From contig NZ_CP042997.1 of assembly GCF_008087625.1 (NCBI RefSeq), forward strand, positions 620,001 through 684,000: a stretch of DNA of 64,000 nt, read 5' to 3'. This document shows, in pieces, positions 19,108 through 21,420 of the stretch. The notes beneath the pieces were generated by a model, which had not been told where the DNA came from, ran no database searches, and worked only from the letters and a program-made list of their open reading frames with translations. Every line of letters begins with the position of its first letter. Positions within the stretch are counted from its first letter, which is position 1. Source of the stretch: Aquisphaera giovannonii. GTDB lineage: Bacteria > Planctomycetota > Planctomycetia > Isosphaerales > Isosphaeraceae. Position numbers and translations under genes: made by a program.

Positions 19108-19992
19108 TCAACCGCGGGGCAAATCTTCCTCGTCGGTCTTGCGGTCGTGCCCCACGAGCCGCTGCATCTCGAGCGCGGGGACGGGGACGTGCTGGAGGTG
19201 GTCCGGGATGCCCTCGGCGCGGCGGTAGAGCTTGTGGACGGCGTCGGCGGTGGGGGCGATCCGGCGGCGCTCCTCGCGCCAGCGGAGGAGCTCCTCGGCG
19301 GCCTTCGGCTCCTCCAGGGCGATCGGGAGCTCGCGGGCCCGGGCGCCCTGGAACGTCGCGTGGGGGACCGGCACGAGCTGCGCGAGGCTCTCCCCCTTCG
19401 CGAAGTCCACGACGCCGGGCTCGACGACCTTCCAGTTGATCGTGAACGTGTAGTTCAGCCACCAGGTCTCCACGACCCCCTCCAGGGGGACGCAGTTGGG
19501 CTTCCAGCGGTTGCCGGGCCCCTTGGTGAGGAGGTCCCAGCCGGTCGAGGTGCGGAAGAGCCAGGGGGGCGAGAACGTGACGATGCCGGAGCCGAACTGG
19601 CTCTTGATGGCCGGGGCGTAGGCCGGGTCGGCCTCGACGACGAGGCCGTCGGGCCCGGGCGAGCCGTCCCAGGTGACGCGGACGTCGGTCGGGCAGAGGA
19701 CCTGCCATCCCCACTGGTTGGCGATCACGAGCGGCAGGCAGTGGTACGCATGCGGGTTGCCGTCCATCCAGTTCCTGCGCCGGGGCGAGGGGCGGAGGAC
19801 CCAGCCGGCTCCCCAGCCCTCCGGCGCGACCACGCGGAGGGCCTTCAGCTCCAGGGGCGCGGGGGGCGTCCCGGCGGCGGCGAGCCTGCGCTCGAGCTCG
19901 GCGATCCTCGCCTCCAGCTCGCGACGGGTCGGCCCGCCGGCCGGGTCCGCCGCCCCGGGTCGGTCGTCCCGCGGGTCATCCTCGGTCTGCAT
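19108..19992 (-). CDS. DUF6065-family protein
   Basis: A 294-residue protein with no signal peptide. The ATG at 19992 has GGGAG six bases upstream. A short acidic N-terminus and coiled-coil-like segment (RRELEARIAELERRLAAAG) precede the conserved domain. That domain contains NPHAYHCLPLVIANQWGWQVLCP, FGSGIVTFSPPWLFRTS, GWDLLTKGPGN, NYTFTINWKV and FAKGESLAQLVPVPH. These match my memory of DUF6065, a family of unknown function often found in secondary-metabolite or iron/oxygenase contexts. The C-terminal region is charged and probably helical. No functional neighbour is apparent, so function is unknown. Confidence 0.7.
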   Translation of the reverse strand: MQTEDDPRDDRPGAADPAGGPTRRELEARIAELERRLAAAGTPPAPLELKALRVVAPEGWGAGWVLRPSPRRRNWMDGNPHAYHCLPLVIANQWGWQVLCPTDVRVTWDGSPGPDGLVVEADPAYAPAIKSQFGSGIVTFSPPWLFRTSTGWDLLTKGPGNRWKPNCVPLEGVVETWWLNYTFTINWKVVEPGVVDFAKGESLAQLVPVPHATFQGARARELPIALEEPKAAEELLRWREERRRIAPTADAVHKLYRRAEGIPDHLQHVPVPALEMQRLVGHDRKTDEEDLPRG

Positions 19993-20380
19993 GACGGTCT
20001 CCCTCGGGGAAGAGGCGACGCCCGGCCGCCCAGGGGGGCTTCCCCGGCCCTTCGCCAGGATGACGCCATCATGGTCCGCGTGTCACCGGGGAGGAAGCCC
20101 GATCGTCCGACGGTGCGCCGGGAGCCGTCGCCGAGGCCATCTCCGGGGTCAAGAAGCCCCGCGACCTCAGGGCGCGGGCCATCTCCGGAGACGGGCCATC
20201 CTCCCGGCTTCCTCGGCGTCGAGTCGGCCTCCGGGCGTACGATCCGTGCTCCCCATCGAGGTCGAGGCCATACGGTCCCGGGCTTGCGACATCGGGATGA
20301 GTCGCTCGGGCGTTGAGAGTCTGTCCCATAAGCGACGCTTCCTGGAAGCCTCGTGAAGAAGGCCGGCCGATCCCGGTCCT

Positions 20381-20466
20381 CCCCCTTACGAAGGGGGAGT
20401 CAGAGGGGGTGTATCGGTCCAGGCCGAGGCGATCGAACTCACCCCCCTGTATCCCCCCTTCGTAAG
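20381..20466. repeat. Palindromic dispersed repeat, split by a MITE
   Basis: The left end is CCCCCTTACGAAGGGGG (20381-20397). The right end is a similar CCCCCCTT-CGTAAG stem whose final G run now lies beyond the MITE at 20720. Between them are complementary tracts (AGAGGGGGTGTATC-like and ACCCCCCTGTATC-like). Rejoining 20466 to 20720 restores the right-hand hairpin, so this element pre-dates the MITE insertion. Confidence 0.7.
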
Positions 20467-20710
20467 GCAGTGCTGTCCGGGTCTTATAGCGGATGTACAG
20501 GGTATCTACCCTTGCTCCACAGGCCTTCGGAGCTTCCCTAGTCCGCCGCAGAACCCCCGGATTAACAGGTGGCATGAACACAGGAAAAATCTGCTACCTG
20601 TTCACATTGTGGAAAGCTCTCGCGTGACAGATGAGAACCGCCTTTAAGCCTCTATGGCCTCTGCGATTATGGCAATACTGCACCTGCACACAAGACCCGG
20701 ACAGCACTGC
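20467..20710. mobile_element. 244-bp MITE with 19-bp terminal repeats and 9-bp target duplication
   Basis: The left terminus is GCAGTGCTGTCCGGGTCTT (20467-20485). Its exact reverse complement forms the right terminus (20692-20710). The flanks carry an identical 9-bp direct repeat, CTTCGTAAG, at 20458-20466 and 20711-20719. The interior has lower GC than its surroundings and no open frame of note. Perfect TIRs plus a target duplication show a recent transposition of a non-autonomous element. A 9-bp duplication would suit an IS4-like parent, but the family is an inference. No matching transposase is in this window. Confidence 0.85.
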
Positions 20711-20811
20711 CTTCGTAAGGGGGGAAGCGGATCCGGCCCTCCGCGATGACCGGGGCACTCCGAAGGAGTCAGGGCCCCTCGGCGCAGGCTTATGAGACAG
20801 TCACTGAGTCC

Positions 20812-21420
20812 TCACGGCGTTGGAGGGCGCCTCCATCCCACCGAGATGGCCCACCGGAGGAACGCCCCGCGTCGCGTCTCCCGGTCAACACGCGGCATCT
20901 CCCCGTCCTGAGCGGCACCCTCTCGCATCCGCCGGGTGTTCTCCTCCATGGGGGGGAGGCCCAGCGCCTCTCGCCGTTCGTCCACGTGCTCCGCGTCCTC
21001 GATCGGGTGCGGGCTGAGCTCCCCCCGATCGTCCCAGTCGTATTGCGTCCCGTATCGCTGCGGTCTCCCCTCGAAGACGCGGATCCGGTCCTCGAGCATG
21101 GCCACCTCGACGCAGGGCACTTCGCCCCGGCTCGCCGCGTCCTGGAGGAGCACGAGGCACCGCCTCTGGAAATCAGGCTGGGCGATCGCGTGCTGGAGGA
21201 TCATCCACGCGGCCCGCGAGCCGTCCTCGCCCGCGACGCTCCGGCCCGGCCACCCACGGGAGGCGATGATCTCGGCGAGGCGTGCCGCGTTCCCGTCGTG
21301 GACCGCCCGCATCTCGGGATGGTAGCCGTCGAAGAGCGAGCCGTCGGCCGCGAGCCTCGCCCGCGTGGCCTGGTCCTCGTCCGCCATGGCCACGAGCTCT
21401 CGCCGGAGCGCTTCATCCAT
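20812..21420 (-). CDS. DUF6624-family protein
   Basis: A 202-residue soluble protein starting MDEALRRELVAMADEDQ. Conserved-looking blocks are LVAMADEDQATRARL, NAARLAEIIASRGWPGRSVAGEDGSRAAWMILQHA, QRRCLVLLQDAASRGEV and YGTQYDWDDRGELSPHPIEDAEHVDERREALGLPPMEENTRRM. These fit my recollection of DUF6624, a family of unknown function. The C-terminal 30 residues are poorly conserved in appearance. It is a single gene on the minus strand; downstream lies the MITE-containing spacer. Confidence 0.75.
   Translation of the reverse strand: MDEALRRELVAMADEDQATRARLAADGSLFDGYHPEMRAVHDGNAARLAEIIASRGWPGRSVAGEDGSRAAWMILQHAIAQPDFQRRCLVLLQDAASRGEVPCVEVAMLEDRIRVFEGRPQRYGTQYDWDDRGELSPHPIEDAEHVDERREALGLPPMEENTRRMREGAAQDGEMPRVDRETRRGAFLRWAISVGWRRPPTP

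What the first reader, a model, noticed from the sequence alone, without database searches (positions are those of the whole stretch)
20381..20727. MITE inserted into the stem of an older palindromic repeat
The 244-bp element has perfect 19-bp TIRs and a perfect 9-bp duplication, CTTCGTAAG. Removing it and one duplication copy rebuilds the hairpin of a different palindromic repeat. This gives a clear order of events and shows a transposase active in trans in the recent past.
Basis: seen in the sequence. Interest (0 to 1): 0.55.

Follow-up and report, generated by a model that had tools for sequence, protein, structure and literature searches.

The report
Miniature transposon targeting hairpin repeat tips
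A 244-base passenger transposon sits exactly at the symmetry centre of a repeated DNA hairpin, and other mobile elements of the same genome land on the same spot, so these hairpins look like preferred landing pads, as has been described in other bacteria.

Summary
In detail: a 244-bp element (20467-20710) with perfect 19-bp inverted ends and a perfect 9-bp duplication CTTCGTAAG; removing it restores a palindromic repeat. But it is not a random hit. Two full-length 1542-bp insertion sequences with similar ends (16-17 of 19 bases) exist in the genome, and both sit at the same hairpin tip with 9-bp duplications: 3 of 3 insertions. A second, Tn5-like element and a ~183-bp MITE family with similar ends use the same tip; 25 of 30 MITE ends examined abut the half-hairpin (background 0.05%). 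In other planctomycete genomes Tn5-like relatives insert at the dyad of different palindromes (17 of 21 resolved copies at p<=0.05, 11 of them in one genome and one repeat family). Two relatives of the MITE's own putative transposase do not. Insertion of IS4-family and other elements at the palindromy axis of REPs is already described (Tobes & Pareja 2006), so this is a new member of a known kind, with MITEs sharing the target. Whether sequence or hairpin shape is recognised is open.

The parts
20467..20710 (.). MITE, 244 bp, 54.5% G+C in a 72% G+C window, no transposase
   Evidence: single copy in own genome
20467..20485 (+). left terminal inverted repeat GCAGTGCTGTCCGGGTCTT
20692..20710 (-). 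right terminal inverted repeat, perfect complement of the left
20458..20466 (+). target duplication CTTCGTAAG, left copy, tip of hairpin 2
20711..20719 (+). target duplication CTTCGTAAG, right copy
20381..20397 (-). intact hairpin 1 of the twin-hairpin unit (CCCCCTTACGAAGGGGG)
   Evidence: G000:C1:640381-640397
20453..20466 (+). left half of hairpin 2, split by the MITE
20720..20724 (+). right stem arm of hairpin 2 beyond the second duplication
20317..20804 (.). host repeat that carries the twin hairpins: 488 bp, that is 235 bp plus the inserted 244 bp and the 9-bp duplication; ends GAGTCTGTCCCATAAGCG and GTGACTGTCTCATAAGC, TGA on both sides
   Evidence: six other copies among the loci on hand: 221, 229, 235 and 235 bp (L016, L118, L028, L111) and 426 and 563 bp (L039, L090)

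Best explanation
The 244-bp element is a non-autonomous element with MITE anatomy, mobilised in trans by an IS4-like DDE transposase of the type encoded by the two 1542-bp insertion sequences of this genome (IS-A). That transposase, like the Tn5-like one (IS-B) of the same genome, chooses as its target the symmetry axis of the abundant CCCCCTT(CGT)AAGGGGG palindrome and joins the element to staggered positions about 9 bp apart around it, so the duplication is the hairpin tip. Shown: the anatomy, the end similarity, the repeated use of the same tip by four kinds of element. Inferred: that IS-A's transposase or a close relative moved the MITE, and that the transposase itself recognises the palindrome.
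For: Perfect 19-bp ends and 9-bp duplication. IS-A copies at G000:C1:2153633-2155174 and 4951216-4952757 with ends matching 16 (left) and 17 (right) of 19 bases and a 465-aa DDE transposase (PF01609). Their duplications CTTACGAAG and CTTCGTAGG lie at the same tip in two other units; 3 of 3 by chance would be about 3e-13 (crude, three positions allowed at each of 237 sites). IS-B (Tn5-like; NF033590 390.6 bits against a cut-off of 160; Tn5 transposase structures) sits in the second hairpin of the very unit whose first hairpin holds IS-A. MITE2: of 41 end matches (reversed control 12) the 30 best, with 0-2 mismatches, came with loci; 25 of these 30 abut the half-hairpin, against 64 of 127,441 window positions on both strands. 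By my grouping the 30 ends belong to 19 copies, 18 of which have at least one end at a half-hairpin. Dyad test with sliding centres: MITE 0.0022, IS-A 0.0074 and 0.035, IS-B 0.015. Genus mate G002 has neither transposase at E 1e-40 and 1e-50; in 20 of its units 73 half-site matches (both strands) were continuous and 1 was broken without a recognisable element.
Against: The two relatives of the IS-A transposase found elsewhere (70% and 39% identical) are not at palindromes (p 0.54 and 0.32; the duplication of the first can be read as 8 or 10 bp), so the rule is not shown for that lineage outside this genome. The MITE ends have CC where IS-A has AA, and its inside is not an IS-A remnant, so the true helper may be an absent relative. 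Of 6 MITE2 copies in the dyad test 3 fail p<=0.05 at the exact centre (0.099, 0.41, 0.16), with better scores 0.5-1 bp off centre. The duplicated 9-mer occurs 150 times in the genome; of the first 100 listed, 6 were seen to lie outside the repeats, so here preference for a 9-bp sequence and recognition of a hairpin cannot be told apart. G002 is a draft of 310 contigs, where insertions may lie at contig breaks.
Confidence: 0.82

Rival explanations
1. Plain sequence preference: the transposases favour a symmetric 9-10-bp target of the form CTT-CGT-AAG, as Tn5, Tn10 and IS231 favour symmetric targets (Tn5: passage; Tn10 and IS231 recalled), and the repeats merely supply most copies of it. No hairpin or cruciform is recognised.
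For: CTTCGTAAG occurs 150 times (reversed control 20). Of the first 100 listed, 15 that did not match the exact-palindrome list were read: 9 still show repeat context (one of them as a half-hairpin beside a MITE2-like end) and 6 do not (my reading). So the site choice in this genome is nearly predicted by the 9-mer alone.
Against: Tn5-like relatives in other genomes sit at the dyads of palindromes with other sequences and other duplication lengths of 8-12 bp; each lineage could still have its own sequence preference.
Confidence: 0.55
2. The MITE-hairpin nesting is a chance event in a repeat-rich genome.
For: The repeat is abundant (237 matches).
Against: 3 of 3 insertions of this end type and 25 of 30 ends of the other MITE at the same tip; 237 tips with three positions each are under 0.01% of the genome.
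Confidence: 0.02
3. The hairpin-flanked copies did not arise by separate insertions but by duplication or recombination of already occupied repeat units.
For: Some copies have unlike flanks that point to recombination (MITE2 at 9,397,582; copies in G273, my reading).
Against: Duplications differ between copies (CTTCGTAAG, CTTACGAAG, CTTCGTAGG, CTTACGAAGG, TTGCGAAG) yet match within a copy, both hairpins of the unit are used, and the outer flanks differ.
Confidence: 0.05

Closest known systems
ISRm22 in REPs of Sinorhizobium meliloti (IS4 family; Tobes & Pareja 2006, PMC1525189)
   Same: IS4-family element, all copies in a palindromic repeat, insertion point at the palindromy axis, direct repeats (Results section read; passages of the Discussion and tables)
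   Different: 6-bp repeats there, 9-10 bp here; no MITE derivative mentioned in the parts I read; different phylum and repeat
ISPpu9 and ISPpu10 of Pseudomonas putida (IS110 family; same paper)
   Same: two different elements that share one exact position in a REP
   Different: IS110 enzymes, 2-bp repeats; IS110 elements select targets with a bridge RNA (search listing and start of abstract only), which is not expected for DDE transposases
ISPsy8 of Pseudomonas syringae (IS3 family; same paper)
   Same: insertion at the symmetry axis of a REP hairpin
   Different: IS3 family, 3-bp repeats
Tn5/IS50 and IS231A (IS4 family)
   Same: DDE transposases with repeats of about one helix turn (passages of PMC2266710); Tn5 target sites are often palindromic (passage of PMC1525189). 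The GGG-N5-CCC target of IS231A, which I recall and did not find in a call, is the form of the G027 targets GGGTGAAACCC
   Different: no single repeat family as near-exclusive target (recalled)
IS1272 inverted-repeat replacing insertion (PMC5678879)
   Same: by its title, an IS whose insertion involves inverted repeats (title and start of abstract only)
   Different: described there as replacing an inverted repeat; here the tip is duplicated

Membership tests
MITE | short, terminal inverted repeats, target duplication, no transposase | tested here: met
   244 bp, 19-bp ends, 9-bp duplication; the only frames of 60 aa or more that overlap it are 170 and 62 aa long and run across its left edge
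MITE | multiple copies in the genome | tested here: not met
   one copy in own genome, none in 58 others; it is a single non-autonomous element with MITE anatomy
MITE | full-length partner with the same ends | tested here: inconclusive
   IS-A ends 17 and 16 of 19 identical; internal sequence not shared apart from slight likeness near the right end
IS4 family (IS-A transposase P0001) | DDE with spacing D(60-110)D(100-150)E | tested here: met
   D138, D215, E322, spacings 76 and 106 (range from PMC2266710); the three residues are invariant in 3 sequences
IS4 family (IS-A transposase P0001) | Y(2)R(3)E(6)K signature | tested here: not met
   Y, R and E present, T in place of K; NCBIfam IS4 model below its cut-off, 78.6 against 115. 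Called IS4-like only
IS4 family, IS50/Tn5 group (IS-B transposase P0002) | NCBIfam IS4 model, Tn5 domains, YREK | tested here: met
   NF033590 390.6 against 160; Tnp_DNA_bind and Dimer_Tnp_Tn5; Tn5 structures E 4e-37; YALRWLVERYHFVLK
REP-targeting IS, type 1 (Tobes & Pareja) | all copies in the same position of a palindromic repeat | tested here: met
   IS-A 2 of 2 plus the MITE with its type of ends; IS-B 1 of 1; small numbers
RAYT-linked REP (target repeat) | repeat copies flank a Y1 transposase gene | tested here: not met
   6 Y1_Tnp genes in the genome; no palindrome with up to 3 mismatches in the five stretches of 5-8.5 kb around them

The most novel reading that the evidence does not exclude
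A lineage of Tn5-like (and at least one other IS4-like) transposases in planctomycetes selects targets by dyad or hairpin geometry and not by a fixed sequence, so that in each genome they, and the MITEs that share their ends, settle in whichever palindromic repeat is abundant there.
Probability: 0.22. Interest if true: 0.65.

Novelty: new member of a known kind. Interest (0 to 1): 0.42.

Why it matters
Interspersed palindromes as safe landing pads would let insertion sequences multiply with little damage to the host. Here two transposase types without meaningful sequence similarity and two MITE families share one 9-bp landing spot, and relatives in other genomes use other palindromes, which sets up a clean test of sequence against structure in target choice by Tn5-like enzymes. 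It also means that such nesting cannot be read as a random clock of events.

Tried and rejected
Orthologous empty site: a 4-kb stretch around the MITE searched in two genus mates gave repeat copies and short matches elsewhere, no syntenic locus, with 40 of 113 and 40 of 615 candidates scored. Rfam: nothing at the gathering scores in 20280-20860. MITE in the plasmid collection: no match. RAYT origin of the target repeat: no palindrome near 6 Y1 transposase genes. Wider search for IS-A relatives: one 70% identical in Singulisphaera sp. and one short match in Phyllobacterium in the genome-contig scan (close relatives only); only the own genome in a drawn sample of 392 of the phylum, up to 4 candidates scored per genome. 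Fifteen 9-mer sites, among the first 100 listed of 150, that did not match the exact-palindrome list were read (plus two stretches with known units) to ask whether sequence or repeat decides; the answer stays open. A paper search for MITE, REP sequences, insertion, palindromic, nested gave 0 papers; one for planctomycet, insertion sequence, target site, palindrom gave 3, and one for planctomycetes with repetitive extragenic palindromic gave 5, whose titles and abstract starts do not report this.

Rows dropped: the dyad test holds 33 insertions with resolved ends: 10 of this genome (the MITE, 2 IS-A, 1 IS-B, 6 MITE2), 2 foreign IS-A relatives and 21 foreign IS-B relatives. Left out were one of 12 G027 copies (L167), the homologs whose ends my script did not resolve or that run off contigs (those printed 'none', among them all 4 copies each of G273 and G150), and 8 of 14 paired MITE2 copies without a perfect, unambiguous duplication. 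The end finder did not use palindromy; the ends of the own-genome elements and of L043 and L044 were set by hand. The p-values are ranks among sliding centres of the same site; G027's 11 copies share one repeat family and are not independent, so the combined value (Fisher 1.9e-8) uses one of them. The phylum search scored at most 4 candidates per genome, so copies there are undercounted.

Full report
OBSERVATION. The element at 20467-20710 is 244 bp long, has perfect 19-bp inverted ends and is flanked by CTTCGTAAG at 20458-20466 and 20711-20719. Without the element and one duplication the flanks read CCCCC-CTTCGTAAG-GGGGG. The 17-base core of that hairpin has 237 matches with at most 2 mismatches in the 10.5-Mb genome; the reversed control pattern has 4. 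The hairpins often come in mirror-image pairs about 73 bp apart. Each can fold alone, or the pair folds into one long hairpin (DNA folding z -6.1 and -6.5 for two intact units).

A THIRD LAYER. The twin hairpins of the window lie inside a larger repeat, 20317-20804, with ends GAGTCTGTCCCATAAGCG and GTGACTGTCTCATAAGC and TGA on both sides. Among the loci on hand 6 other copies were found: four of 221-235 bp and two of 426 and 563 bp; in 4 of the 7 copies the same TNA triplet stands on both sides, in 3 it does not (L028, L111, L118). A 3-bp TNA duplication recalls the IS1031 group of IS5 (recalled, not tested). So the order is: larger MITE-like repeat with twin hairpins, then the 244-bp element in one hairpin.

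PARTNERS OF THE MITE. The ends were searched in the whole genome with up to 3 mismatches: 8 places (reversed control 0), of which 2 are the MITE and 4 are the ends of two 1542-bp insertion sequences, here IS-A; the other 2, each with 3 mismatches, have no partner nearby. IS-A encodes a 465-aa DDE transposase, the same in both copies. Its ends agree with the MITE in 17 (right) and 16 (left) of 19 bases; beyond the ends there is only slight likeness. The MITE itself has no other copy in this genome or in 58 other genomes. Thus IS-A or a relative is the plausible helper; that is inference.

TARGET CHOICE. Both IS-A copies lie at the same tip of the same repeat, with duplications CTTACGAAG and CTTCGTAGG. 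In the first of these units, the other hairpin is occupied by a different full-length element, IS-B: ends CTTAGCATTACCCAC and CTTATCGTTACCCAC, 10-bp duplication CCTTCGTAAG, a 451-aa Tn5-like transposase. The two transposases show no meaningful similarity to each other (best local match 21.9 bits). A short element of about 183 bp with ends like IS-B (MITE2, CTWTGCTTTACCCACAARTCG) gave 41 end matches with up to 3 mismatches, the reversed control 12. The 30 best (0-2 mismatches) came with loci; 25 of these abut a half-hairpin in the right register, against 64 of 127,441 window positions (both strands; the locus itself left out on the plus strand only). Of the five that do not, two (L053, L062) abut what looks like a further element (ends about GGCAYCGTCCC, 8-bp duplication CATAGCCT in L022; my reading), one (L080) abuts an altered hairpin, and two (L060, L075) neither. 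So four kinds of element share one landing spot.

OTHER GENOMES. IS-B relatives were sought in 45 family members (7 with matches, own included) and in 392 phylum members (18 with matches, own included, at most 4 candidates scored per genome). Ends and duplications were resolved by a script that did not use palindromy. In G027, 11 of 12 copies of a 37-38% identical element were resolved; all 11 lie in CCAG-GGGTGAAACCC-CTGG-like palindromes, a different repeat, with 11-12-bp duplications. G009, G225, G393, G040 and G346 each give at least one further palindromic target of other sequence. The dyad test (14 pairs around the centre of the duplication, against centres slid along the same flanks) gave p<=0.05 for 17 of 21 foreign IS-B relatives; the four misses are L173 (duplication with one mismatch), L192, L196 and L185. 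With one G027 copy only, Fisher's combined p is 1.9e-8. Against: both foreign IS-A relatives (G016, 70%; G001, 39%) have ordinary targets (p 0.54, 0.32), so 17 of 23 foreign copies in all, and many homologs could not be resolved.

EMPTY TARGETS. The genus mate G002 has neither transposase at the thresholds used (1e-40 and 1e-50). In 20 of its repeat units, chosen from the hits, 73 half-site matches (both strands, so a hairpin can count twice) were continuous and one was broken without a recognisable element. The units were chosen by matching the left hairpin and the left half of the right one, so breaks in the left hairpin would be missed, and G002 is a draft of 310 contigs. No orthologous locus was found.

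MECHANISM. Most likely, dimeric DDE transposases pair the element ends and attack a symmetric target with a 9-10-bp stagger, and the palindrome offers two equal half-sites to the two subunits (inference from established knowledge of Tn5). Recognition of an extruded cruciform tip is possible but not needed. In this genome the two cannot be separated: of the first 100 of 150 copies of the 9-mer, only 6 were seen to lie outside the repeats (the other 50 were not listed).

ORGANISM. The genome is a member of the same family as G016, whose contig C609 has the length of the Singulisphaera sp. record DAIDJG010000609.1 (69,556 bases); Singulisphaera belongs to Isosphaeraceae.

KNOWN. Tobes and Pareja (2006; Results section and passages of the Discussion and tables read) describe six elements that always insert in one position of a REP, among them ISRm22 of the IS4 family at the palindromy axis with 6-bp repeats, and two elements, ISPpu9 and ISPpu10, that share one position. 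'IS4 family goes genomic' (passages) gives the YREK signature and duplications of about one helix turn. The present case is a new member of this kind. What it adds is the MITE level, the sharing of one tip by two DDE transposase types, and the change of repeat from genome to genome.

Noticed in passing
window 20317-20804: The twin hairpins are carried by a larger MITE-like repeat with ends GAGTCTGTCCCATAAGCG (235 bp without the insert); 6 other copies among the loci on hand. It may be how the hairpins spread.
   Followed up: partly
L020 1577-1770, L022 1575-1770 and the 14 paired copies: MITE2, about 183 bp with ends CTWTGCTTTACCCACAARTCG, in L020 and L022 itself holds a GTAGGGTGGGTCAGCC repeat; among the listed end matches no pair has the spacing of a full-length element.
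   Followed up: partly
L022 about 1770-2105; also beside MITE2 in L060 and L062: A further element with ends GGCAYCGTCCC and, in L022, an 8-bp duplication CATAGCCT, inserted at the junction of MITE2 and hairpin.
   Followed up: no
L139 3621-6700: One twin-hairpin unit with both hairpins occupied, one by IS-A and one by the Tn5-like IS-B.
   Followed up: yes
L157 and L159-L169 (G027): Twelve copies of a Tn5-like element; the 11 resolved ones all lie in the tip of a CCAGGGGTGAAACCCCTGG-like palindrome.
   Followed up: partly
window 19108-19992 and 20812-21420, minus strand: Neighbouring genes: DUF6065 and DUF6624 proteins; the repeat lies between them.
   Followed up: no
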